Assembly: GCA_030613055.1 (NCBI GenBank)
Contig: JAUWMR010000011.1
Span: forward strand, 1 to 64,000
DNA from: Desulfobacteraceae bacterium
GTDB taxonomy: Bacteria; Desulfobacterota; DSM-4660; Desulfatiglandales; Desulfatiglandaceae
Direction of reading: 5' to 3'
DNA length: 64,000 bases
Part shown: piece by piece, positions 244-28,976 of the stretch
How positions within the stretch are numbered: position 1 is the first letter of the stretch
Layout: the number at the start of each line of letters is the position of its first letter
Made by a program: the position numbers and the translations under genes
Notes under the pieces: generated by a model
Database searches by the model: none
Told to the model about the DNA's origin: nothing
What the model saw: only the letters and a program-made list of their open reading frames with translations

Positions 244-1653
244 ATGATTAACAATATCGCTATTCGTGTCAATGAAGTAACCAAGACCTACAAGCTCTAC
301 GACACTCATGCTGACAGGGTCAAGGAAGCATTCCATCCTTTGAGGAAAAAATATCATCGTCCCTTTAATGCCTTGACCGATGTTTCCTTTGATGTAAACA
401 AAGGTGAAACCCTTGGTATTATTGGCAGAAACGGCAGCGGTAAGTCCACATTGCTGCAAATCATATGCGGAATCCTGCAACCCACATCAGGAAGCGTTGA
501 AGTAAATGGAAGGGTTTCGGCCTTGCTGGAATTAGGGGCAGGCTTCAACCCTGAATTTACAGGGCGTCAAAATGTCTATATCAATGGATCAATACTCGGT
601 TTGGCACATGAAGAGATAGAGACGCGTTTTGACGAAATTGCCGCATTCGCAGATATAGGCGATTTTATTGACCAACCTGTAAAGTCTTATTCGAGCGGTA
701 TGGTTGTCAGGCTTGCTTTTGCCGTAGCCATAAGCATCGAGCCGGATATCCTTATCGTTGATGAGGCGCTTTCTGTGGGAGACGAAGCATTTCAGCGCAA
801 ATGCTTCGCGCGTATTAAGCAAATTCAGGAAAAAGGAGGCACCATACTTTTTGTATCACACGGAGCAGGAACAATTGTTGAGCTTTGCAATAAGGCTTTA
901 TTGATCGATCAGGGTGAATTGCTTACAGGGGGTTCGCCAAAACAAGTGGTTTCTTATTACCATAAAATGATTTTTGCTCCCCCAGAAAGAATTGAAGAGA
1001 TGAAGAAAGAATGGCAAGGTGATCCAAATCGGTTGAACCTTGTTTGGGATGAGAATGAAGAGGAAAAAGAAAACGAAAGTGAGAAAAGCAGCGAAAATGG
1101 AGTAGAAAAGAAAGATAAAGAAAAGCCTGCCCAGGAATCATTTTATGTCCCGGACATGTCGCCTCAAAGCACAATTTACTATGAAAAGAATGGAGCTATT
1201 ATTGATAATCCGCACATTACTACTTTGCAGGGCAAGCAGGTCAATATACTTGTGAATGGAGAAGAATATATCTATACTTATTCAGTATTTTTTGAACGCC
1301 CGGCCTTTCAAGTCCGCTTCGGAATGTTAATCAAAACAGTCAGCGGCTTCGAAATAGGAGGAGCCGCGACAGCCCCCATAGGAGAAGGGATAGATTATGT
1401 TGAAAGCGCAACGTCCTGGTGTGTAAAATTCCGCTTCCGTTGTCTCCTAAACCCGGGGGCTTATTTTCTCAACGCCGGTGTTTTGGGAGTAGTTAACGGA
1501 TCTGAAGACTACTTAGACAGAAACGTAGATATTGCCATGTTTCGCGTGCAGGATAATGAAAATAGAACTGCTACGGCAATAGTTAATTTCATTAAACACG
1601 CAGAAGTGGTGATGGTTGAAGAAGAAACAAATTTTGATGTCGCTCAAAACTGA
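244..1653 (+). CDS. wzt: ABC transporter ATP-binding protein, Wzt type (polysaccharide/O-antigen export)
   Basis: ATPase subunit of a type of ABC exporter that moves undecaprenyl-linked polysaccharide across the inner membrane. Seen: Walker A GRNGSGKST (residues 61-69), signature YSSGM (149-153), Walker B ILIVDE (169-174), H-loop His206. A charged Glu/Lys linker (about 268-297) leads to a C-terminal domain (about 300-469) in the place where Wzt proteins carry a beta-sandwich that binds the finished, often terminally capped, glycan. At 469 residues it fits the long, cargo-binding Wzt class rather than the short capsule class (about 220-250). The partner permease Wzm is not in the window, and the fragment upstream does not look like one. 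The ATG at 244 is the first in frame. The methyltransferases downstream would be logical chain-capping enzymes, by analogy with WbdD, but that is inference. Confidence 0.9.
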   Translation: MINNIAIRVNEVTKTYKLYDTHADRVKEAFHPLRKKYHRPFNALTDVSFDVNKGETLGIIGRNGSGKSTLLQIICGILQPTSGSVEVNGRVSALLELGAGFNPEFTGRQNVYINGSILGLAHEEIETRFDEIAAFADIGDFIDQPVKSYSSGMVVRLAFAVAISIEPDILIVDEALSVGDEAFQRKCFARIKQIQEKGGTILFVSHGAGTIVELCNKALLIDQGELLTGGSPKQVVSYYHKMIFAPPERIEEMKKEWQGDPNRLNLVWDENEEEKENESEKSSENGVEKKDKEKPAQESFYVPDMSPQSTIYYEKNGAIIDNPHITTLQGKQVNILVNGEEYIYTYSVFFERPAFQVRFGMLIKTVSGFEIGGAATAPIGEGIDYVESATSWCVKFRFRCLLNPGAYFLNAGVLGVVNGSEDYLDRNVDIAMFRVQDNENRTATAIVNFIKHAEVVMVEEETNFDVAQN

Positions 1654-1693: not shown

Positions 1694-4600
1694 ATGAAGC
1701 AGGCTACTAACAAAAATCGGAATGCTATCATTGTTCTCGGCATGCACCGCAGCGGCACGTCCGCTTTAGCGCGCACGCTCAATCTGTGCGGTGTTGACTT
1801 GGGAAACAATCTGATGTCTCCCGGACCAGAGGATAACGTAAAAGGTTTCTGGGAGCACATGGACATTTATCACATGAATGAAAAACTGCTCCTGGATCTG
1901 GGTTCATCCTGGGATGATGTGCGTTCCCTCCCTGACAGATGGTGGAATTCAGATTTTGCAGAGGCCTATAAGCTTGAAATTATCAGTATACTGGAGCGTG
2001 ATTTTTCCAATTCTCCTTTCTGGGGAGTTAAGGATCCGAGAATATGCCATTTTTTGCCTCTGTGGCTTCCCCTTTTGGAACAGACAGGCAGTAAACCGTA
2101 CTTTTTAATCATTGTAAGGAACCCCCTCGAAGTTGTGTCGTCGCTGGCAAAACGTGATGGGTTTTCAAAAGGCAAGTCTTGCCTGTTGTGGCTGAAGCAT
2201 TTGATCGAATTGGAAAAGGGCACACGAAATACGTCCAGAATGTTCGTCACATATGAAGAATTACTCTCCGATTGGAAAGGACTTTTGACCAGGGTGGAAA
2301 AAACCTTTGGGTTTAAATGGACAAAAAATCCAGTAAAAGTAAGTTCAGAGATCAAGTCATTTCTCCAGGATAGCATGCGTCACAATAGGGTCACAGATAC
2401 AACATTGACAAAAGATAAGACCCTATCCAAATGGATTCGGGATATGTATCGGGCAATAAACGGCATTATTGACGGAGACGATACCCGGTTAATTAAAACT
2501 GTAAACACCATTGAAGCTAAACTCAAAGAAGCTGTTAGCCTATATGATCCGGCGTTGACAGAGATATGGGAAAAATACCAGGCCAATAGTGCAATGCTAC
2601 AGGATCGGAGCCGGCAGTTAGATGATATTAACAATCAGATTGAGGAGTTCCGTCAGGATAAGGGATATCACCTGTCCAGTATTGATCACCTGCAATCCGG
2701 GATCAAAGAGAAGGATGAGCATATTCAGCAATTGGATTCCGAACTCACAGGTTTACGCAGTGAATTATCAGAAGTCCAACAAACTGCTGTACGCCGTGAA
2801 GTAGAGGTTGACCACCTGCAAGCCGCGATTAAAGAGAAGGATGAGCATATTCAGCAACTGGATACTGATCTTGCAGGCTTACGGGAAGCATTTGGTGCAT
2901 CTCAGGAGGCGCTAAAGGAGCATGAATCCAAGGTTGCTCACCTGCAAGTCGATATCAAAGAACGAGATGAATATGTCCGGCGGCTAAAAACTGATTCTGT
3001 AGGCCTGCAAGAACAATACACTGCCTTGCAAGGCGCAATAACAGAGCGTGAGGCAGAAATTACTCACTTGCAAACCGGAATCAAAGAAAAGAATGATCAT
3101 ATTCAACAAATAGATACTGAGCTTGCTGGATTGCGAGAAGAATTTGCTGCGTCTCAGCAGTCAGTAAAGGAGCATGAATCCAAGGTTGCCAACTTGGAAA
3201 CCGGAAATAAGGAGAAGGCAGAGCATATACATCAAATAGATGCTGACGTAGGAATGTTGAGAGATGAAATTGATTCCCTGCGGACGCTGGTGGAGAATTA
3301 CAGGATTGACCGGAAGTCAATATTTAATTCAACTTCATGGAAGCTTACAGCGCCGTTAAGATGGATGTCTATGAATGCCAGGTATCTCAAGCTCAATCTT
3401 GGAGCAGCTCGCTATCTCTTTAGTAGACAATACAGATTGATAAAAAAATCGGGATTGTTTGATATGTCGTATTATCTGGATCAAAATCCAGATGTTTCAG
3501 AATCGAAGATGAATCCTTTACTACATTATCTAAAGTTTGGTGCAAGAGAAGGGAGAAACCCTAATTCAATTTTCCTAACCTCATTCTATTTGAAACAGAA
3601 TCCAGATGTAGCTGAATCAAAGATGAATCCTCTGGCACATTATCTCAAATATGGCTGGAAAGAAGGGAGAAATCCCAGCCTGACATTTGACAGCTCAACT
3701 TATCAGATACAGAATCCGGATGTATCTGAATCAGGCATGGATCCTTTATCGCATTATTTTCAATATGGCTCAAAAGAGCGAAATGAGCACAAATTACTAT
3801 TTCCTGATTCGTATCGGGTGGATCAAGGCTCAGATACCGAGGAGTCGGCAATATTTCCACATAAAAGCTCTAATAAAAGAAATGACAGAGAATTACATAG
3901 GCATGTGCAAGCATCTATTATCATATATGTTACTAGCCTAAATGATATAAACAGTGCATTTGTAAAATCTATCCAAAATGAATCGCAAAATAGCTATTGC
4001 GAAGTAATCGTTGCTGCCAATTGTAATTCAGATGAGCTTATATTAGAAGATGAACTTTCTACAGGAATTAAATTTGTTTTTGAAGACGGGTCTGGATATT
4101 TTAAATTTTTTAATAAAGCTGCCAAGTCAGCGAAAGGAGAATTTTGTGTTTTTCTTCATGATGTTTCAAAAGTTGGAGAAGGATGGCTTGAATATCTTCT
4201 TGATGTCATGGAAAAAGATAAATCAGCCGGATTGGTTGGTTCTAAAATTTTAAATTCTGCTGGAAAGCTGCAGGATGCCGGAGGTATTGTCTGGCGTAAC
4301 GGGGAAATTTATCAATATGGCCTCTTAGATGATCCGGAATTGCCTGAATACAATTATCTAAAAGAAGTCGATTATATTTCTGGGAATAGTTTCATTATTC
4401 GGAAAGAACTATTAAGTAATATTGGTGGTTTCGATTGTATGTTTTCCAAAGACATTTTTCAGTACATCGATTTAGCATTCAAAATTAGAAAGCGTGGTTT
4501 CAAAGTTCTTTATCACCCGAAATCGGTTGTTGTAATAAACGATAAAGAAAACTCGAATTCTGATCGTACAAAAAATATCAACATCAATACTAATAACAGT

Positions 4601-5785
4601 GATGAATATAAATTAAAGAAAAAGTGGTCGAATGTTTTAAATAGTTACCATTTAAAGGAAGGAAGTGATATTTATTTAACTCGAGATAGAAGCCAGAGAA
4701 AAAAAAGGATTTTGGTTGTTGATCACTACACCCCAGAGTTTGATATGGATGCAGGATCGTTAAGAATGTTCAAACTACTGAAGATAATGTCAGAATTAGA
4801 TTACAAAGTTATTTTTTGGCCTGCAAATAGAGCTTATCAAGAACGATACACTTGGGCGCTTCAAAGTATTGGAGTTGAAGTTCTCTATGGTGCAATTGAT
4901 TTCGAGAAATATTTAAAGATGAATGGTGAACACATCGAAGTGATATTTTTGTCTCGGCCTCATATTGCTATTAATTTCATAGACGCCGCTAAAACCCTGA
5001 CAAATGCAAAAATTATTTATGATACAGTCGACCTCGTTTTTCTTCGTGAAGAGCGGAAAGCGAAGCTCGAAGGAAAAAAGCTTGGAAATGAAATTAAGAC
5101 CACTGAACTGCTACTGGCAAACAAAGCAGATAAAGTACTCGTAGTAAGTCCTGTTGAAAAAGATATTTTAGAAAAACAAGGGCTAAAAGGAAAGGTATCG
5201 GTAATCTCCACTGTGCACTCATTGGAATTATTAAACAGTTCTTTTGAGAATAGAGCTGGATTGATGTTTATAGGCGGATTTATGCATCTACCAAATGAGG
5301 ATGGAATAGTGTGGTTTGTTCAGTCTGTTTTTCCTCTAATCAATAAAAGCCTCCCAGGTATTCATCTGTATATTGTTGGAAGCCACCCGACTAACAAAGT
5401 AAAATCGCTGGCCTCCCCTAATGTAACCGTAACTGGCTATGTAAAGGATGTCTCTTTCTACTTTGAAAAGTCTAGAGTTTTTGTCAGTCCATTACGATAT
5501 GGGGCAGGGGTAAAGGGGAAAATAGGCCAAAGCATGGCGTATGGCCTACCTGTTGTTACTACGTCTATTGGTGCAGAAGGAATAGGTGTGACTGATGACT
5601 ATAACATTCTCGTTGCAGATAGCGAAAGTCAATTCAAAGAAAAAGTTGTAAAAGTTTACCAGGACCCAAAGTTATGGAAAACTCTTTCATTAAATGCAAG
5701 GACTTTAATTAAGCAAAAGTACACCCCCAATGCGATCAAGAAAGAATTATCTAAAGTTCTGAGAGATACCCTCAAACCCTATTAA
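1694..5785 (+). CDS. Sulfotransferase / coiled-coil / GT2 / GT4 fusion protein
   Basis: Multidomain protein of 1363 residues. Residues 1-260 are a PAPS-type sulfotransferase: P-loop-like GMHRSGTSAL at 16-25 and IIVRNPLEVVSS further on. Residues about 300-535 form a coiled coil containing four exact 42-residue units (six heptads; starts 337, 379, 421, 463) and a partial fifth at 505. A NSTSWKLTAPLRW linker (near 545), common in modular glycosyltransferases, follows. Then come three 38-residue repeats (starts 593, 631, 669) with the core NPDV.ES.M.PL.HY. Residues about 739-945 resemble a GT2 domain; its metal-binding acidic motif is hard to see, so it may be degenerate. Residues about 1004-1363 are a GT4-like domain with a GAGVKGKI segment near the donor site. 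Likely adds sugars and sulfate to the glycan exported by the Wzt system. It ends 2 bp before the next ATG, suggesting co-translation. Confidence 0.85.
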   Translation: MKQATNKNRNAIIVLGMHRSGTSALARTLNLCGVDLGNNLMSPGPEDNVKGFWEHMDIYHMNEKLLLDLGSSWDDVRSLPDRWWNSDFAEAYKLEIISILERDFSNSPFWGVKDPRICHFLPLWLPLLEQTGSKPYFLIIVRNPLEVVSSLAKRDGFSKGKSCLLWLKHLIELEKGTRNTSRMFVTYEELLSDWKGLLTRVEKTFGFKWTKNPVKVSSEIKSFLQDSMRHNRVTDTTLTKDKTLSKWIRDMYRAINGIIDGDDTRLIKTVNTIEAKLKEAVSLYDPALTEIWEKYQANSAMLQDRSRQLDDINNQIEEFRQDKGYHLSSIDHLQSGIKEKDEHIQQLDSELTGLRSELSEVQQTAVRREVEVDHLQAAIKEKDEHIQQLDTDLAGLREAFGASQEALKEHESKVAHLQVDIKERDEYVRRLKTDSVGLQEQYTALQGAITEREAEITHLQTGIKEKNDHIQQIDTELAGLREEFAASQQSVKEHESKVANLETGNKEKAEHIHQIDADVGMLRDEIDSLRTLVENYRIDRKSIFNSTSWKLTAPLRWMSMNARYLKLNLGAARYLFSRQYRLIKKSGLFDMSYYLDQNPDVSESKMNPLLHYLKFGAREGRNPNSIFLTSFYLKQNPDVAESKMNPLAHYLKYGWKEGRNPSLTFDSSTYQIQNPDVSESGMDPLSHYFQYGSKERNEHKLLFPDSYRVDQGSDTEESAIFPHKSSNKRNDRELHRHVQASIIIYVTSLNDINSAFVKSIQNESQNSYCEVIVAANCNSDELILEDELSTGIKFVFEDGSGYFKFFNKAAKSAKGEFCVFLHDVSKVGEGWLEYLLDVMEKDKSAGLVGSKILNSAGKLQDAGGIVWRNGEIYQYGLLDDPELPEYNYLKEVDYISGNSFIIRKELLSNIGGFDCMFSKDIFQYIDLAFKIRKRGFKVLYHPKSVVVINDKENSNSDRTKNININTNNSDEYKLKKKWSNVLNSYHLKEGSDIYLTRDRSQRKKRILVVDHYTPEFDMDAGSLRMFKLLKIMSELDYKVIFWPANRAYQERYTWALQSIGVEVLYGAIDFEKYLKMNGEHIEVIFLSRPHIAINFIDAAKTLTNAKIIYDTVDLVFLREERKAKLEGKKLGNEIKTTELLLANKADKVLVVSPVEKDILEKQGLKGKVSVISTVHSLELLNSSFENRAGLMFIGGFMHLPNEDGIVWFVQSVFPLINKSLPGIHLYIVGSHPTNKVKSLASPNVTVTGYVKDVSFYFEKSRVFVSPLRYGAGVKGKIGQSMAYGLPVVTTSIGAEGIGVTDDYNILVADSESQFKEKVVKVYQDPKLWKTLSLNARTLIKQKYTPNAIKKELSKVLRDTLKPY

Positions 5786-20475: not shown

Positions 20476-21891
20476 GTGGAAGAAAAAAGGCTTACGCGAA
20501 GGCAGTTTTTACACAAGGCCGCATATGGTCTGGGTGCCCTGACCATAGCTCCAAGGGGTGTTGCATCTGGCTTTAGCACTAAACGTCCTTTAAAACCGAA
20601 CATGATTTTCATTCTTACGGACGACCAGCGCTGGGATGCACTCGGTTGTGCGGGCAACCCGATTATTCGAACTCCAAACATGGATCAGCTTGCGGAGAAA
20701 GGCGTGCGCTTCGAGAACGCATTCGTCACATCTCCCATATGTACTGCCAGTCGCGCCAGTATACTAACTGGACTCTATGAACGAACGCATAGCTTTTCAT
20801 TCAAAACACCACCTCTTGCTCGCACACACACTGATATGAGCTATCCACACCTTCTGGGCCAAGCGGGATACCGTACAGGGTTTATTGGCAAGTTCGGGGT
20901 TGAGGTAGAGAAAGAAGCCATAGGAAAGATGTTCGATTTTTATGTGCCCCGGGTGCGTACCCCATATTTCAAGAAAATCGACGGCAAACTCCGGCATCTG
21001 ACCGAAATCAACGGGGATGAGGCAATCAGATTTCTTCATACGTGCAAACCGGGCCAGCCCTTTTGCATGTCAATAAGTTTCAATGCTCCACATGCCGAGG
21101 ATAACGACCCGAAACAATATTTTTGGCCACCTGCATGTGACAATCTTTACAATGATATCAATATCCCTGGGCCTAAAACGTCCGATCCTGCTTTCTTCAA
21201 TGCTCAGCCGGAGTTTCTGAAAGAATCATTGAACCGGGTGCGCTGGAAATGGCGTTTTGATACGCCACAGAAATACCAGAATATGGTAAAAGGGTATTAC
21301 CGCATGATCAGCGGGGTGGACATGGTGCTCGGAAGAATAATGGAGGAACTGAATAGACTTGGAATGAACAAAAACACAATCATTATTCTTATGGGGGACA
21401 ATGGTTGTTTCTTGGGGGAACGAGGTTTTGCCGGAAAATGGTTGATGCACGATCCCTCGATTCATGTTCCACTAATCATTTACGACCCCAGGCGAGGGAA
21501 TTCCATGCAGGGTATAGTATTGAAGCATATGGCACTGAATGTTGATATTGCCCCGACGATTTTGTCCATGGTCGGCCTAGATATTCCCGGCACCATGCAG
21601 GGCCGGGACCTGACTCCCTTTTTAAATGGAGAACATATTCCTTGGCGTACCCAGGTGTTTTGTGAGCATCTATTCAATCACCCGAAAATTCCGCAAAGCG
21701 AGGGAATCCGCACAACAAACTGGAAATATATCCGTTACCGGCAATATCCGGATTTTGAAGAGCTGTATAATCTTGTCTGTGATCCGCAGGAAGAACACAA
21801 TCTGGCCGGGGATAAGCGCTATGCTGCAAAGTTGCTCGAACTGCGTAAGAGCTGCAATGAGAAGATAGAGATGTTTTCAAAAAAAATGTGA
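20476..21891 (+). CDS. Tat-exported sulfatase (Cys-type, FGly-dependent)
   Basis: 471 residues from GTG 20476 with GAGGAG upstream. A twin-arginine signal (TRRQFLHKAAYGLG) begins the protein. The sulfatase core has metal-binding ILTDDQRWD, the formylglycine motif C89-T-A-S-R followed by ASILTG, GDNG near residue 300 and a typical C-terminal region (YNLVCDPQEEHNLAG). Cys at the motif means the active residue is made from cysteine. This is the type handled by an anSME, and the neighbour is one. Predicted to remove sulfate esters from a glycan in the periplasm. Substrate unknown; the adjacent rhamnosidase hints at sulfated rhamnose. Confidence 0.93.
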   Translation: MEEKRLTRRQFLHKAAYGLGALTIAPRGVASGFSTKRPLKPNMIFILTDDQRWDALGCAGNPIIRTPNMDQLAEKGVRFENAFVTSPICTASRASILTGLYERTHSFSFKTPPLARTHTDMSYPHLLGQAGYRTGFIGKFGVEVEKEAIGKMFDFYVPRVRTPYFKKIDGKLRHLTEINGDEAIRFLHTCKPGQPFCMSISFNAPHAEDNDPKQYFWPPACDNLYNDINIPGPKTSDPAFFNAQPEFLKESLNRVRWKWRFDTPQKYQNMVKGYYRMISGVDMVLGRIMEELNRLGMNKNTIIILMGDNGCFLGERGFAGKWLMHDPSIHVPLIIYDPRRGNSMQGIVLKHMALNVDIAPTILSMVGLDIPGTMQGRDLTPFLNGEHIPWRTQVFCEHLFNHPKIPQSEGIRTTNWKYIRYRQYPDFEELYNLVCDPQEEHNLAGDKRYAAKLLELRKSCNEKIEMFSKKM

Positions 21892-21986
21892 CTTCGTGGG
21901 ACAGCCCTTAAGTGTGGAAAAATTCCATTTTTTGTATTTCATCCTGATTATAATAAAAACATGATGAATATAATATTTTTAGAATA

Positions 21987-22025
21987 GTGGGACCTTCGAA
22001 AATTACCATTTTGCAAAGGTCTCAT
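21987..22025. mobile_element. Short MITE relic with facing GAGACC ends
   Basis: GGGACCTTCGAAAAT faces ATTTTGCAAAGGTCTC with only a few bases between, so both ends of the GAGACCTTTGCAAAA element are present and the middle is missing. The GTG used as start of the maturase frame lies at its left end. Confidence 0.55.
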
Positions 22026-23189
22026 AGTGTATGGGAGGATAGAACAATCAAGCCATTTTCCCTTCTCATAAAGCCTGCATCAGCAGATTGTAACCTGCGC
22101 TGTTCCTATTGTTTTTACTTGCCTAAAGCAGATCTTTACCCGGAAATAAAAGTCCATCGAATGTCTTATCACATACTTGAGCGCCTCATTTCAAGCTATA
22201 TGGCAACAGATCAGGCGCAGTATGTGTTTGCATGGCAGGGAGGAGAGCCAACACTCATGGGAGTTGACTTCTTCAACAAAGTAATTGAACTACAGCAAAA
22301 GTATGGCCGATCTGGTAGTGTTGTTGCCAATGGGCTTCAAACCAATGCAACGCTTATTACTGATGAACAGGCCGAGCTTCTTTCGAGATATAAATTCCTG
22401 GTAGGTGTGAGTCTTGACGGTCCTGAAGATATTCACAATAAAAACAGAGTAACCGCCCGAGGAAAAGGTTCCCATTTGGATGTACTGCGAGGCATAGAAT
22501 GTCTTAAGAAAAATAGAGTGCAATTCAATACACTTACACTTGTAAATGCGGATAATGTGACGTGTGGAAGCACGGTTTATCAGTATTTATGCGATAATGG
22601 GTGTTTCTTTCAGCAATATATTCCATGTGTGGACTTTGATGGAAGCGGCAAACCTTCTCCCTATTCTATAACAGGAAAGCAATGGGGGGAATTTCTCTGC
22701 GAAATTTTCGATGAATGGTGTATAAATGATATCTATAGGATTTCAATTCGATTATTTGATTCAATTCTGGAATACCTTGTTAATGGGGTAAGTAATGTAT
22801 GTAGTATGATGAAAAATTGTAATAGTTATTTCCTTGTTGAATATAATGGTGATATTTATCCATGTGATTTTTTTGCAGAGCCAATCCTTAAGTTAGGTAA
22901 CATCGCAAAAAATTCATGGGAGAGTTTTCAGACATCCGTGAGATATTTGGAGTTTGGAGAGAAAAAATCAAAATGGAATGAGGTATGCGATAGATGTCCA
23001 TACTTGGAGCTATGCGCAGGTGATTGCCCGAAGCACCGATTATATGACCTCACTAATCCAAGATCGCGTAGTTGGTTATGTGAAGGTTGGGAGACATTTT
23101 ATTCCCATACATTGAGCCATTTTAGACAACTTGCGGAAATAGTTCAAAGGAAGCGACAAAGAGAGACAATTATTAGACAGAAAATATAA
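21987..23189 (+). CDS. Anaerobic sulfatase-maturating enzyme (radical SAM, SPASM)
   Basis: 400 residues. Radical SAM cluster C35-x3-C39-x2-C42 in PASADCNLRCSYCFY, the anSME hallmark, followed by WQGGEPTLMGVDFF and GVSLDGPEDIHN. C-terminal cysteines (CDFF, CDRCPYLELCAGDCPKHR) ligate two auxiliary [4Fe-4S] clusters. It oxidises the active-site Cys (or Ser) of sulfatases to formylglycine in the cytoplasm without oxygen. The frame opens at GTG 21987 inside a MITE relic and lacks a clear ribosome-binding site; no in-frame ATG precedes the conserved KPFSLLIKPAS, so the original start seems to have been replaced. Confidence 0.93.
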   Translation: MGPSKITILQRSHSVWEDRTIKPFSLLIKPASADCNLRCSYCFYLPKADLYPEIKVHRMSYHILERLISSYMATDQAQYVFAWQGGEPTLMGVDFFNKVIELQQKYGRSGSVVANGLQTNATLITDEQAELLSRYKFLVGVSLDGPEDIHNKNRVTARGKGSHLDVLRGIECLKKNRVQFNTLTLVNADNVTCGSTVYQYLCDNGCFFQQYIPCVDFDGSGKPSPYSITGKQWGEFLCEIFDEWCINDIYRISIRLFDSILEYLVNGVSNVCSMMKNCNSYFLVEYNGDIYPCDFFAEPILKLGNIAKNSWESFQTSVRYLEFGEKKSKWNEVCDRCPYLELCAGDCPKHRLYDLTNPRSRSWLCEGWETFYSHTLSHFRQLAEIVQRKRQRETIIRQKI

Positions 23190-23248: not shown

Positions 23249-23416
23249 ATGAAAACCGGTATGAAGCAGGGGCTGAAAATGCCTTATGGTGAAGGGCTAA
23301 CCACCCACGCCAGTCCTGAGTCATGCGTTAATGGTGGCAACATCCTTAGCGAAGCGTTGACAAGGGAAAGTGCCCCGTTAAATCGGGATGTTCCACACGC
23401 TAAGACCTTTGCATAA
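23249..23416 (+). pseudogene. Relic frame resembling leader sequence of group II intron/RT elements
   Basis: A 55-codon frame reads MKTGMKQGLKMPYGEGLTTH then ASPESCVNGG...SEALTRESA. The pattern 'GLxxHxxPESC...EALTxxxxxxLSRE' is one I associate with the region upstream of group II intron reverse transcriptases; that link is from memory and uncertain. It stops where a MITE-like end (AAGACCTTTGCATAA) begins. No reverse transcriptase follows. Best treated as mobile-element debris. Confidence 0.35.
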
Positions 23417-24475: not shown

Positions 24476-26326
24476 TTGTCATTGCTCTTCATAAAATTAC
24501 TCAACATTAAATTGTTTAGGGCATCCCACTTGTTCCAGAAGGGATTATTGGTTATTGCAAGGGAAGGTTATCGTGAATTTTTTTTAAGGTTATGGGGTTA
24601 CATATATCGAAATAAATACGACATCATACCTGGCATCAAGACTGACTATAATAGATGGATGAAAAATAACAAATTAACAGACATGAGGATTGATGAGATA
24701 AAAATTGAGATTACAAGATTTCAACACAGACCCAAGATCAGTATAATCATGCCTGTCTATAATGTTGATCAAATCTGGTTGGAGAAAGCGATCGATTCAG
24801 TAATGAACCAGTTATATGACAACTGGGAATTATGTATCGTTGATGATGCCTCTACCAAAGAGCATATAAGAGAAACCTTAAAAAGTTATTCGGAAAAAGA
24901 CAGCAGAATAAAGGTCAAATATCTAAAAAAGAATCAGGGCATAGCAGGAGCCTCCAATGAAGGTGTTTCATTATCAACGAGTGAATGGATAGGGTTTTTA
25001 GATAATGATGATGAATTGACTGAAGATGCTTTATTTGAAGTTGTTAAAGTTATTAACCGAAATAGCGCCAAGATTATCTATTCTGATGAGGGTATTATAG
25101 ATCATAAAGGGAAAATGATCAGCATCCATTTTAAACCTGATTTTTCACCGGATTTGTTGTTTTCTCATAATTATATCACTCATTTTTTAGTATTCAGCAA
25201 ATCATTATTTCAAGAAGCTGGCGGGTTTTCTTCAAAATATGATGGCGCGCAGGATTATGATTTAATCTTAAAGCTTACTGAAAAAACTGATACAATATTT
25301 CATATTCCAAAAGTGTTGTACCATTGGCGGACGATTCCCACATCCACAAGCACAAACCCTGAATCAAAATCTTATGCGGATAATGCCGGAAAAGCGGCTT
25401 TAGTTGCGGCTTTAAATCGGAGAAAAACTGCCGGAAACGTATTAAACACAGATACGATATTTCATTATCGAGTGAAAAGATGGTTGATCCATAATCCACT
25501 TATCAGCATAATTATTCCGTTTAAAGATAAGCCTGAATTGTTAACTAATTGCATCGAATCGATTTTGACAAAAACAAACTACGATAATTTCGAGATAATC
25601 GGCATAAGCAATAACAGTAAAGAATCAAAAACCTTTGACGTGATGACAAGATTGCGGGACGCGGATAAACGAATAAGAATCATTGAATACAATATTGATT
25701 TCAATTTTTCGAAAATAAATAATTACGCGGTCTCTTTAGCAAATGGTGAACATGTTGTGTTGATGAATAATGATATTGAAATACTAAATGTTGACTGGAT
25801 TGAAGCTTTGCTTGAACACTCGCAAAGAGAAGATGTTGGCGCGGTCGGAGCTAAATTGTATTATGCCAATGATACGATTCAACATGCTGGTGTAATAGTT
25901 GGTATTGCCGGTTTTGCCGGCCATTCTCACAGACATTTTAGTAAAAATGATGTCGGTTATTTTAACAGATTGAAGTGCATCCAAAATGTAAGCGCCGTTA
26001 CAGCCGCGTTGATGATGGTGAAGAAAAATTTATACGAAAAATTAAGGGGGCTTGATGAGATAAATCTATCTGTTGCGTTAAATGATGTAGATTTTTGCTT
26101 AAGGTTAAGAGAAAAAGGATATTTGAATATTTATACACCTTATGCGGAATTCTACCATTATGAGTCTTCCAGCAGAGGGTATGAAATCGGCCCTGAAAAA
26201 CAGTCAAGGTTCAAAAACGAAATAGAATACTTTCAAGCAAGGTGGAAAGAAGTATTGGAGAAGGGAGATCCTTATTACAACCCCAACCTGACCCTTGATA
26301 AGGAAGACTTCTCTTTAAGGTTATGA
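24476..26326 (+). CDS. Tandem GT2 glycosyltransferase (rhamnosyltransferase-like)
   Basis: 616 residues with two GT-A domains. The first (about 85-290) has ISIIMPVYNVD, VDDASTKE and LDNDDELT; the second (about 340-590) has ISIIIPFKDKPELL, MNNDIEIL and NDVDFCLRLREKGY. Such double-GT2 proteins assemble O-antigen or cell-wall rhamnan. The listed start is a TTG (24476) with only a weak GGxx upstream; the first in-frame ATG is near residue 61, still before the first domain, so the N-terminus is uncertain. The short N-terminal stretch is hydrophobic and basic and may bind the membrane. AT-rich like its downstream neighbour. Confidence 0.85.
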   Translation: MSLLFIKLLNIKLFRASHLFQKGLLVIAREGYREFFLRLWGYIYRNKYDIIPGIKTDYNRWMKNNKLTDMRIDEIKIEITRFQHRPKISIIMPVYNVDQIWLEKAIDSVMNQLYDNWELCIVDDASTKEHIRETLKSYSEKDSRIKVKYLKKNQGIAGASNEGVSLSTSEWIGFLDNDDELTEDALFEVVKVINRNSAKIIYSDEGIIDHKGKMISIHFKPDFSPDLLFSHNYITHFLVFSKSLFQEAGGFSSKYDGAQDYDLILKLTEKTDTIFHIPKVLYHWRTIPTSTSTNPESKSYADNAGKAALVAALNRRKTAGNVLNTDTIFHYRVKRWLIHNPLISIIIPFKDKPELLTNCIESILTKTNYDNFEIIGISNNSKESKTFDVMTRLRDADKRIRIIEYNIDFNFSKINNYAVSLANGEHVVLMNNDIEILNVDWIEALLEHSQREDVGAVGAKLYYANDTIQHAGVIVGIAGFAGHSHRHFSKNDVGYFNRLKCIQNVSAVTAALMMVKKNLYEKLRGLDEINLSVALNDVDFCLRLREKGYLNIYTPYAEFYHYESSSRGYEIGPEKQSRFKNEIEYFQARWKEVLEKGDPYYNPNLTLDKEDFSLRL

Positions 26327-26408: not shown

Positions 26409-28976
26409 ATGAATATTATTTTTTCAATGTTTATATCATTATTTCTATTCGCTGTTAGCATTTATTTATACAGAAAAAGGAGTACTTCAATAATAAACAG
26501 GTTCCTTTTTTGTGTTTTAATTTTTACTTCAATTATTTATTACTTATTCTATGCTATAGCAAATTATTTTACAGGAAATGGTATAGATAGATCTGTTATT
26601 TTTCATCTTAAAAGTGGTTTAGCTGGGGCTGGGTTTTTAGAATATTGGGGACTTATTGCCACATCGATTATATTTATTATCCTTGGCTTGGTTTTTTCAT
26701 ACTGGATATTTTCGAAAAAGGGTAAAAATAAAGCTAACAGGATAGGTTATGTTCATGCGGCTTTTATACTTATACTATTATCTCTGCTTTCTAGCCCTGC
26801 AACCTCTGATTTAAGTAATATTCTATTTCAGAGTTCTAACGCTACCGAGAGCTCTAATGCTACCGAATTTTACAAATTCTATAAACAACCTTATATAAAA
26901 CAAGTGGGTGATATTAGAAACTTAGTCGTCATATATTCTGAGGGTTTAGAATGGACATATTTCAATGAAACCATCTTTCCTGGCCTGATTAAAGGACTCC
27001 TTGAGATTCAATCTAAGAGCACTTACTTTACTAATATTAAACAAATTCCTGGAACCGAATGGACAATTGCGGGTATGGTAGCTAGCCAATGTGGAATTCC
27101 ATTATTTTGTCCTTCCCATGGCAACTCTATGTCAGGTATGGATTATTTTCTACCTTTAGCGGTCTGTCTTGGCGATCTATTACATAAAGAAGGTTATCAT
27201 CTTACATATTATGGAGGTGCTGATCTTGATTTTGCGGGGAAAGGGAAATTTTTTTCGACACATGAATTTGATGATATTTTTGGTAGAGATGAGCTATTGC
27301 CTAACCTGAAAGATAAATCTTACAGAACTGGGTGGGGGTTATATGATGACTCGTTATTTGATTTATCTTACCAGCGTTTTATTGAATTATCAGAAACCCA
27401 CGATAAATTTGCACTTTTTTTGTTAACGTTGGATACCCACCATCCTCGTGGAAATCCTTCCAAGAGTTGTCAGGGTATAATCTATAAAAATGGTTCAAAT
27501 CTGATGCTTAATTCAGTAGCTTGTTCAGATCATTTAATTGCTAAATTTGTTAACAACATAATGCAATCTCCATATGGTTCAAAAACGGTTGTGGTAGTAA
27601 TTTCAGATCATCTTGCCATGAGAAATACAGCCTCTAAACTTCTAAACAAAGGAGAGAGAAGGAATCTTTTTATGATCATTGAACCTAATGTAAACAAATC
27701 GACTAAAATAGTGAAACCAGGTTCATCTCTTGACATTGGAGCTACGATATTGCCTTTCATTGGCTACAAAGGCGCAATAGGATTGGGTAGAAATTTAATA
27801 GATAAAAACCAAGCAAAATCAGAATCTGAATATATACATAAGAATCTGACTTCTTGGAGACACTCTATTTCTCGCTTTTGGAATTTTCCAAAAATTCAAG
27901 AATATGTTGAAATTAATATTACTGACAGAACAATAAATATAGATGGTAGAACATTTAACATTCCCGTTCTTTGTGAATTCAATGCTGAATTAGAAACTAC
28001 CCTAAAATATCAATTTGATAGTTGTAAGGAGCATAAACAATTAATTGATCATGTTCTGACGATTGATAAGAATACACCGTTTCTATTAATTGATAAATGT
28101 AAGAATGTTAACAGATTAGATGAAACATTAGGGCAAACTGGATTTTGTTTAATTATAGGTAAAGGCGATAAGTATTACAAAAAAGATAGGATTAAAAAGA
28201 ATATAAAATTAACTACTGAAGATATCCGTCGTTTTACTGGCCTTTACACTCCATCAACAACTAACTTCCAAGTACACCGAATTTCGCATGCTGGTGGAGC
28301 TATTGAAGGGAAAACATATACGAATAGCCTTGATGCTTTAAATCATAATATAAAAAACGGTTTTTTGTATTTTGAACTGGATTTTTCTTTTACAAAAGAT
28401 GGACAATTAGTATGCATGCATGATTGGCAACACAGCTTTAAAAAGGCTTTTGGGTTTGAAGCAAAAGAAAAGCCATCTCTTGAGACTTTTAAGTTTCTGG
28501 TCAAAAATGCGTCTGAGTTTGAAATTTGTACACTTGATAATTTGATTACTTGGATGGAACAATATCCATCTTCATTTATTATTACGGACATAAAAGAAAA
28601 TAATCTTAAGGGATTGGAAATAATTTCAAATAAATTTCCTGATTTTAAAAGAAGAATCATTCCTCAAGTTTATAATCCAAATAATTATAATAGTGTCAAA
28701 AGGATAGGGTATGAACAGATTATATGGACACTTTATCGTTATAATAATACTAATGACGATGTGCTAAAATGGGTTGACAAATTTAAAGGGCCTTTTGCTA
28801 TTACAATGCCTAAAAATCGAGCAGCATCAATTTTACCAAGAGAACTGGCAAAAAAGCATATACCGACTTACGTTCACACTATAAATACATTAGAGGAAAG
28901 GAATAAATTTATAAACGAATTCCATGTAACAGAAATTTATACTGACTTTTTATGTCCCAATAAACGGACACAATGA
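26409..28976 (+). CDS. Membrane phosphoglycerol transferase (MdoB/LTA synthase-like) fused to a GDPD domain
   Basis: 855 residues. About four membrane helices lie in residues 1-135. A periplasmic alkaline-phosphatase-superfamily domain follows (about 170-490): VVIYSEGLEW, candidate nucleophile Thr219 in PGTEWTIAG, TLDTHHPRG and VISDHLAMRN, as in OpgB/MdoB and LTA synthases. It lacks the C-x-P/A-S-R motif of true sulfatases. A linking segment (about 500-615) precedes a glycerophosphodiester phosphodiesterase domain (about 620-850) with His627 in HAGG, the ELDFSFTKDG metal site and CMHDW. One half would transfer phosphoglycerol to a glycan, the other would cleave glycerophosphodiesters. The combination in one chain is unusual to me. 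Confidence 0.87.
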   Translation: MNIIFSMFISLFLFAVSIYLYRKRSTSIINRFLFCVLIFTSIIYYLFYAIANYFTGNGIDRSVIFHLKSGLAGAGFLEYWGLIATSIIFIILGLVFSYWIFSKKGKNKANRIGYVHAAFILILLSLLSSPATSDLSNILFQSSNATESSNATEFYKFYKQPYIKQVGDIRNLVVIYSEGLEWTYFNETIFPGLIKGLLEIQSKSTYFTNIKQIPGTEWTIAGMVASQCGIPLFCPSHGNSMSGMDYFLPLAVCLGDLLHKEGYHLTYYGGADLDFAGKGKFFSTHEFDDIFGRDELLPNLKDKSYRTGWGLYDDSLFDLSYQRFIELSETHDKFALFLLTLDTHHPRGNPSKSCQGIIYKNGSNLMLNSVACSDHLIAKFVNNIMQSPYGSKTVVVVISDHLAMRNTASKLLNKGERRNLFMIIEPNVNKSTKIVKPGSSLDIGATILPFIGYKGAIGLGRNLIDKNQAKSESEYIHKNLTSWRHSISRFWNFPKIQEYVEINITDRTINIDGRTFNIPVLCEFNAELETTLKYQFDSCKEHKQLIDHVLTIDKNTPFLLIDKCKNVNRLDETLGQTGFCLIIGKGDKYYKKDRIKKNIKLTTEDIRRFTGLYTPSTTNFQVHRISHAGGAIEGKTYTNSLDALNHNIKNGFLYFELDFSFTKDGQLVCMHDWQHSFKKAFGFEAKEKPSLETFKFLVKNASEFEICTLDNLITWMEQYPSSFIITDIKENNLKGLEIISNKFPDFKRRIIPQVYNPNNYNSVKRIGYEQIIWTLYRYNNTNDDVLKWVDKFKGPFAITMPKNRAASILPRELAKKHIPTYVHTINTLEERNKFINEFHVTEIYTDFLCPNKRTQ

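What the first reader, a model, noticed from the sequence alone, without database searches (positions are those of the whole stretch)
26409..28976. Phosphoglycerol transferase and glycerophosphodiesterase in one chain
An MdoB/LTA-synthase-like domain with Thr219 is joined to a GDPD domain with His627 and ExD and HD motifs intact. The two activities, putting on and cutting glycerophosphate, are normally separate. A fusion could trim or recycle phosphoglycerol decorations or act in a transfer/hydrolysis cycle.
Basis: partly seen in the sequence, partly recalled or inferred. Interest (0 to 1): 0.7.

Follow-up and report, generated by a model that had tools for sequence, protein, structure and literature searches.

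The report
OpgB–GDPD fusion enzyme, real and recurrent
One membrane protein joins an enzyme that puts glycerol-phosphate onto surface sugars with one of a family that cuts glycerol-phosphate off; the same pairing recurs in very different bacteria as a fused protein or as neighbouring genes, so the two steps probably work together.

Summary
One unbroken 855-aa frame (26409-28976) carries an OpgB/LtaS-type phosphoglycerol transferase with every active-site residue, and a C-terminal GDPD-family TIM barrel that replaces OpgB's own C-terminal domain (DUF7024). It is not an assembly artefact: the same architecture occurs end to end in Deltaproteobacteria, Methylothermaceae and Candidatus Magasanikbacteria, with more distant fusions in Bacteroidota and Marinicella and a separate fusion to a canonical GDPD in the window's own order. 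Elsewhere the two genes are adjacent (Desulfocicer, strain NaphS2, LtaS-GDPD pairs in Clostridia). In total 18 of 62 loci of this GDPD subfamily are fused or adjacent, against 2 of 59 canonical-GDPD loci. The GDPD is atypical (HR becomes HA, ExK becomes DxK) but keeps both catalytic His and the metal ligands. The genome lacks OpgG and the gene sits in an ABC-exported polysaccharide locus, so the acceptor is probably a surface glycan. Most likely it is a bifunctional extracytoplasmic enzyme that adds phosphoglycerol from phosphatidylglycerol and edits, trims or salvages it. The GDPD's substrate and stereospecificity are unknown and are the key open question. This is a new variant of known enzyme kinds.

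The parts
26409..28976 (+). OpgB-GDPD fusion gene, 855 aa
   Evidence: single ORF; full-length homologues L017, L018, L019
26409..26870 (+). N-terminal membrane region, about four TM helices (residues about 1-154)
   Evidence: hydropathy and AlphaFold2 helices 3-24, 28-55, 76-102, 108-127, low to moderate pLDDT there
26886..27818 (+). OpgB/LtaS-type phosphoglycerol transferase domain (residues about 160-470): E178, T219, H344, D400, H401
   Evidence: Pfam Sulfatase; OpgB NCBIfam 461 bits; E. coli OpgB 33% over 15-617; fold match to LtaS/LtaP, one with glycerol phosphate; residues conserved in fused copies
27819..28247 (+). inter-domain region shared with E. coli OpgB (residues about 471-613), containing RFTG, next to where OpgB's C-terminal domain would lie
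   Evidence: alignment with E. coli OpgB; absent in L019
28263..28964 (+). GDPD-family domain (residues 619-852): H627, E656, D658, H671, D727, K729
   Evidence: Pfam GDPD; AlphaFold2 model pLDDT 95.6, fold match 1o1z, 2pz0, BsGlpQ 5t9c; profile match to PDB GDPDs
24476..26326 (+). upstream double GT2 glycosyltransferase, 82 bp away, same strand (context)
   Evidence: Pfam Glycos_transf_2, two stretches
244..1653 (+). Wzt-type ABC transporter ATPase with Wzt_C domain (context: ABC-exported polysaccharide)
   Evidence: Pfam ABC_tran + Wzt_C

Best explanation
It is a membrane-anchored, bifunctional, extracytoplasmic enzyme. The N-terminal OpgB-type half takes sn-1-phosphoglycerol from phosphatidylglycerol through a Thr219 intermediate and places it on a surface glycan, probably the ABC-exported polysaccharide encoded around it. 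The C-terminal GDPD half, which occupies the place of OpgB's DUF7024 domain on the same side of the membrane, cleaves glycerophosphodiester bonds of the product or of excess or misplaced phosphoglycerol by the two-histidine, metal-dependent mechanism of GDPDs. Decoration level or chain length is thereby set by transfer and removal in one polypeptide. Shown here: the architecture, both intact active sites, the membrane anchor, recurrence as fusion and as gene pair, and absence of the OPG pathway gene OpgG. Inferred: both activities, the acceptor, and that the GDPD acts on the transferase's product.
For: All OpgB/LtaS catalytic and metal residues (E178, T219, H344, D400, H401) and all GDPD ones (H627, E656, D658, H671, D727) are present; in the eight fused copies examined they are invariant except T219 to Ser in two and D727 to Glu in L007. 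GDPD identity (68% to L017, 56% to L018) nearly matches the transferase domain (74%, 58%) and exceeds the inter-domain region (56%, 30%), so both domains are under comparable constraint. The fusion recurs: L017, L018, L019, L028, L037, L049, 12 of 249 Flavobacteriaceae genomes, G818 in the CPR class, and an independent fusion to a canonical GDPD, L007. Separate but adjacent pairs exist in several orientations, 12 within 100 bp against 2.7 expected (P 2.5e-5). Fused or adjacent in 18/62 loci against 2/59 for canonical GDPDs, Fisher p 1.3e-4. Trees need at least 4 changes of the fused state on the transferase tree and 3 on the GDPD tree. Standalone relatives have an N-terminal hydrophobic anchor or signal-like segment, consistent with an extracytoplasmic site. 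No MdoG/OpgG in any of the 12 genomes with the pairing that were searched. The locus has Wzt, GTs, GDP-mannose dehydratase, RmlC and RmlD. Precedents: the membrane-anchored GlpQ domain of WhyD removes wall teichoic acid (PMC9208761); GDPDs work through two His and a cyclic intermediate (PMC10404611).
Against: No activity is shown. Known GlpQ-type GDPDs cleave sn-Gro3P diesters and do not touch LTA, PG or lysoPG (PMC7086022), whereas OpgB/LtaS use sn-Gro1P. The canonical Arg next to the first His is Ala. The GDPD is dispensable: L081 is a closely related OpgB that ends where the GDPD would begin. In Desulfocicer, Methylothermaceae and Magasanikbacteria the gene is not in an obvious polysaccharide locus.
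Confidence: 0.5

Rival explanations
1. Salvage or clean-up: the GDPD half does not touch the glycan but hydrolyses small or lipid phosphodiesters made around the transferase, such as glycerophosphoglycerol, lysophosphatidylglycerol or the cyclic phosphoglycerol that OpgB can release without acceptor (the last from my own knowledge of E. coli OpgB).
For: S. aureus LpgD, a GDPD of the same fold, cleaves lysoPG via a cyclic product (PMC10404611); LpgD is a structural match and its NCBIfam model gives a weak hit, E 0.002. Pairing with LtaS/OpgB, which consume PG, fits equally well.
Against: LpgD's lipid groove was not looked for here; the NCBIfam score is far below its cut-off (17 against 450 bits).
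Confidence: 0.25
2. The GDPD half is not a hydrolase but an altered domain: a synthase/cyclase, a second transferase, or a glycan- or phosphoglycerol-binding module that replaced DUF7024.
For: HR to HA and ExK to DxK changes across the subfamily; K729 replaced in the Bacteroidota/Marinicella fusions; it sits in the place of an OpgB accessory domain; a GDPD-derived synthetase exists (AvrBs2, abstract of PMC12807533).
Against: Both catalytic His and all three metal ligands are nearly invariant in 66 sequences, unlike a decayed binding domain. GDPD-related enzymes with a dual-His/metal site that make cyclic products exist (noted in PMC10404611).
Confidence: 0.2
3. It is simply the OPG (periplasmic glucan) phosphoglycerol transferase OpgB with an accidental passenger domain.
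For: OpgB profile covers 6-597.
Against: No MdoG/OpgG in the genome or in 11 others with the pairing; DUF7024 absent; score below OpgB's curated cut-off (461 against 574); GDPD conserved across phyla.
Confidence: 0.04
4. Assembly join or frameshift artefact.
For: None.
Against: End-to-end homologues in independent assemblies.
Confidence: 0.01

Closest known systems
OpgB/MdoB, phosphatidylglycerol-membrane-oligosaccharide glycerophosphotransferase (E. coli)
   Same: membrane region, catalytic domain, inter-domain region; 33% identity over 15-617
   Different: E. coli OpgB ends in DUF7024 (616-759); here a GDPD domain takes its place, and OpgG is absent from the genome
LtaS/LtaP lipoteichoic acid synthases
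   Same: fold and active-site residues, structure with glycerol phosphate; LtaS-GDPD gene pairs in Clostridia
   Different: sequence is OpgB-type; no evidence here of polymerisation
GlpQ/UgpQ/GDPD glycerophosphodiesterases
   Same: TIM barrel, two catalytic His, metal ligands
   Different: HR to HA, ExK to DxK; fused to a transferase; membrane anchor; probably different stereochemistry of substrate
WhyD (S. pneumoniae)
   Same: membrane-anchored extracellular GlpQ domain that tailors a surface polymer (PMC9208761)
   Different: no transferase domain; acts on wall teichoic acid
LpgD (S. aureus lysoPG phospholipase D)
   Same: GDPD acting on a phosphatidylglycerol-derived substrate; fold match 8ghh
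   Different: canonical GDPD; single TM helix; no transferase
phage phi812 central spike / phage K gp155 GDPD
   Same: best sequence-profile match of the subfamily in the PDB; GDPD inside a larger surface-acting protein
   Different: phage structural protein

Membership tests
OpgB/LtaS phosphoglycerol transferase (sulfatase superfamily) | catalytic Thr and metal ligands Glu, Asp, His | tested here: met
   T219, E178, D400, H401; fold LtaS/LtaP
OpgB/LtaS phosphoglycerol transferase (sulfatase superfamily) | N-terminal membrane helices with extracytoplasmic catalytic domain | tested here: met
   helices by hydropathy and model; orientation inferred from OpgB, not tested
OpgB/LtaS phosphoglycerol transferase (sulfatase superfamily) | transfers phosphoglycerol from PG | not testable with these tools
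   needs assay
OpgB equivalog (OPG pathway) | score above NCBIfam equivalog cut-off | tested here: not met
   460.7 against 574 bits
OpgB equivalog (OPG pathway) | C-terminal DUF7024 | tested here: not met
   present in E. coli OpgB, absent here
OpgB equivalog (OPG pathway) | OpgG/MdoG in the genome | tested here: not met
   no PF04349 match in a 95.6% complete genome, E. coli control rings
GDPD family | Pfam GDPD match and TIM-barrel fold | tested here: met
   29.5 bits against 23.6; model pLDDT 95.6 matching GDPD structures
GDPD family | two catalytic His and ExD metal ligands | tested here: met
   H627, H671, E656, D658
GDPD family | Arg after the first His (HR) and ExK third-ligand motif | tested here: not met
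   A628 and D727-x-K729; nearly the whole subfamily shares this
GDPD family | hydrolysis of glycerophosphodiesters | not testable with these tools
   needs assay

The most novel reading that the evidence does not exclude
The HA-type (Arg-less) GDPDs that travel with OpgB/LtaS enzymes are hydrolases of PG-derived, sn-glycerol-1-phosphate decorations and polymers, with stereospecificity opposite to GlpQ. The fusion is a single-chain write-and-erase enzyme for phosphoglycerol on surface glycans, found from Desulfobacterota to Bacteroidota and CPR bacteria.
Probability: 0.25. Interest if true: 0.75.

Novelty: new variant of a known kind. Interest (0 to 1): 0.5.

Why it matters
The pairing predicts an enzyme partner for phosphoglycerol transferases in many bacteria, including LTA-type enzymes in Clostridia. 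It gives a concrete candidate for a hydrolase of sn-glycerol-1-phosphate polymers, which the characterised GlpQ enzymes cannot cut. It also shows OpgB-type enzymes in genomes without the periplasmic glucan gene OpgG. I found no description of the fusion in the open papers searched, but that library is partial.

Tried and rejected
Assembly artefact: rejected, because homologues align end to end. Classical OPG synthesis: rejected, no OpgG. Viral or plasmid carriage of the fusion: no fused match in phages, plasmids or viral contigs. E. coli genomes: no DNA match. A close fused relative among 99 relatives or the 85 genomes of the class: none; only the distant L007 type. Family of Desulfocicer searched with its GDPD gene: the other hits were only its N-terminal DUF4214 part. 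A single unbroken origin of the fusion: not supported, at least 4 changes on the transferase tree and 3 on the GDPD tree. A first script for the GDPD tree failed on group labels and was repeated. Literature searches for the fusion or pairing gave nothing on it.

Full report
Observation. The ORF at 26409-28976 (+) is open without a stop for 855 codons. Pfam finds Sulfatase (252-452) and GDPD (637-675), both above cut-off. NCBIfam's OpgB model covers residues 6-597 with 461 bits, below its equivalog cut-off of 574. tblastn finds annotated opgB genes at 33% identity over 15-617.

Anatomy. About four membrane helices (residues 1-154) lead to the OpgB/LtaS-type catalytic domain (E178, T219, H344, D400, H401). 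Its fold matches LtaS/LtaP, including LtaS with glycerol phosphate. An inter-domain region shared with E. coli OpgB follows. In E. coli the last domain is DUF7024 (616-759). In the window a GDPD domain (619-852) takes its place. The GDPD model has pLDDT 95.6 and matches GDPD structures, among them 1o1z, 2pz0 and B. subtilis GlpQ with glycerol-3-phosphate. The whole-protein model is weaker (pLDDT 78.6, pTM 0.57), so the relative placing of the domains is not known.

Catalytic residues. In 66 aligned members, H627, N639, E656, D658, H671 and D727 are nearly invariant. The canonical Arg after the first His is Ala, Gly or Ser in all but L007, and the canonical ExK is DxK. The subfamily is therefore catalytically equipped but atypical. 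It keeps the two-histidine/metal site that the GDPD mechanism needs (LpgD, PMC10404611).

Relatives. A scan of about 85,000 species' genomes returned 63 loci. Fused, same architecture: L017 (Deltaproteobacteria, 63% end to end), L018 (Methylothermaceae), L019 (Candidatus Magasanikbacteria, with the inter-domain region missing). Fused, more distant transferase: L028 (Marinicella), L037 (Altibacter), L049 (Cytophagales). A targeted search found 12 of 249 Flavobacteriaceae genomes with fusions of about 980 or 750 aa, and another CPR-class fusion, G818, 870 aa. L007, from a genome of the window's own order, is a separate fusion of a sulfatase-fold transferase with a canonical HR-type GDPD.

Neighbouring genes. 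Desulfocicer vacuolatum has GDPD then OpgB, 12 bp apart (L020). Strain NaphS2 has them convergent, 50 bp apart (L021; its contig has the length of G010:C47, so G010, of the window's family, is this strain). Uhrbacteria overlap convergently (L034). A Nitrospirota genome (L047) and Clostridia (L015, L031, L043, L046, L050, L076, L079) have GDPD and LtaS-type genes side by side on one strand. Of 62 subfamily loci, 6 are fused and 12 adjacent within 100 bp, against 2.7 adjacent expected from the density of such genes elsewhere in the same flanks (P 2.5e-5). In a control of 59 canonical-GDPD loci, 2 were fused or adjacent; Fisher p 1.3e-4. Caveats: related rows are not independent, the control taxa differ in mix, and the scan was seeded on conserved stretches of this subfamily.

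History. On the transferase tree the fused state needs at least 4 changes, and on the GDPD tree 3. The split Desulfocicer GDPD lies inside the fused clade on the GDPD tree. L081 (618 aa) is an OpgB of the same clade that ends where the GDPD would begin. So the pair has been fused, split and shortened repeatedly. The GC-poor stretch (about 34% at 24.5-29 kb against about 45% on both sides) and the spread over distant phyla suggest horizontal movement; this is inference.

Constraint. Against L017, identity is 74% in the transferase domain, 56% in the inter-domain region and 68% in the GDPD; against L018 it is 58, 30 and 56%. The GDPD is kept almost as tightly as the transferase, which speaks against a decaying passenger.

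Setting. There is no OpgG/MdoG match in this genome or in 11 others with the pairing, while the E. coli control rings. The window is a polysaccharide locus: Wzt with Wzt_C, glycosyltransferases, GDP-mannose 4,6-dehydratase, RmlC, RmlD, then GT2s on both sides of the fusion. L017 lies next to a GT2 gene as well. In L019 the gene follows a LysM-M23 peptidase gene by 9 bp. The genome has one other GDPD, scoring 73.6 bits with Pfam.

How it probably works. OpgB-type chemistry moves sn-1-phosphoglycerol from phosphatidylglycerol to a glycan outside the cytoplasmic membrane (established for E. coli OpgB; PMC8027125). The GDPD sits on the same side. The simplest reading is write-and-erase control of the phosphoglycerol level. 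The main difficulty is stereochemistry: characterised GlpQ enzymes release sn-Gro3P and leave sn-Gro1P polymers and PG untouched (PMC7086022). Either this subfamily, with its changed active-site motif, accepts sn-Gro1P diesters, or it clears other phosphodiesters made near the transferase. WhyD is a precedent for a membrane-anchored GlpQ domain that tailors a surface polymer (PMC9208761).

Novelty. Both domains are known kinds. The combination, and the link of this GDPD subfamily to OpgB/LtaS enzymes, were not found in the papers searched; the library is partial, and domain-architecture databases may already list the pairing without comment. I rate it a new variant of a known kind, interest 0.5.

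Noticed in passing
L007 91-2238 (-) (= L163; G078:C931): Independent fusion in the window's order: sulfatase-fold transferase joined to a canonical HR-type GDPD (95.7 bits), 716 aa as held.
   Followed up: partly
L020 7347-11002: Desulfocicer vacuolatum DSM 3385: DUF4214-GDPD gene 12 bp upstream of an OpgB gene; a cultured host of the split pair.
   Followed up: partly
L081 578-2434 (-): 618-aa OpgB of the same clade that ends where the GDPD would begin; natural GDPD-less form.
   Followed up: partly
L015, L031, L043, L046, L050, L076, L079: LtaS-type gene directly next to or overlapping an HA-type GDPD gene in Clostridia; candidate LTA turnover operons.
   Followed up: partly
L019 6550-10106: A 1.0-Mb CPR genome carries the fusion 9 bp after a LysM-M23 peptidase gene; the fusion is the only Pfam-Sulfatase match in that genome.
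   Followed up: no
window 20476-23189: Sulfatase with SGSH_C domain followed by a radical SAM-SPASM protein, maybe its anaerobic maturase; both next to a rhamnosidase.
   Followed up: no
window 23276-23408: Group II intron D1-D4-6 match (79 bits) over 133 bases, with no reverse transcriptase gene noticed beside it; looks like a remnant.
   Followed up: no
window 26830-26866: 18-bp tandem repeat, two copies, encoding SSNATESSNATE in the fusion between membrane region and catalytic domain.
   Followed up: no
window 1694-5785: 1363-aa protein with coiled-coil matches and a C-terminal glycosyltransferase group 1 domain, next to Wzt.
   Followed up: no
L140, L142, L143, L156: Proteins of about 627-645 aa in relatives with an unidentified N-terminal part of about 360 aa and a C-terminal canonical GDPD.
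   Followed up: no
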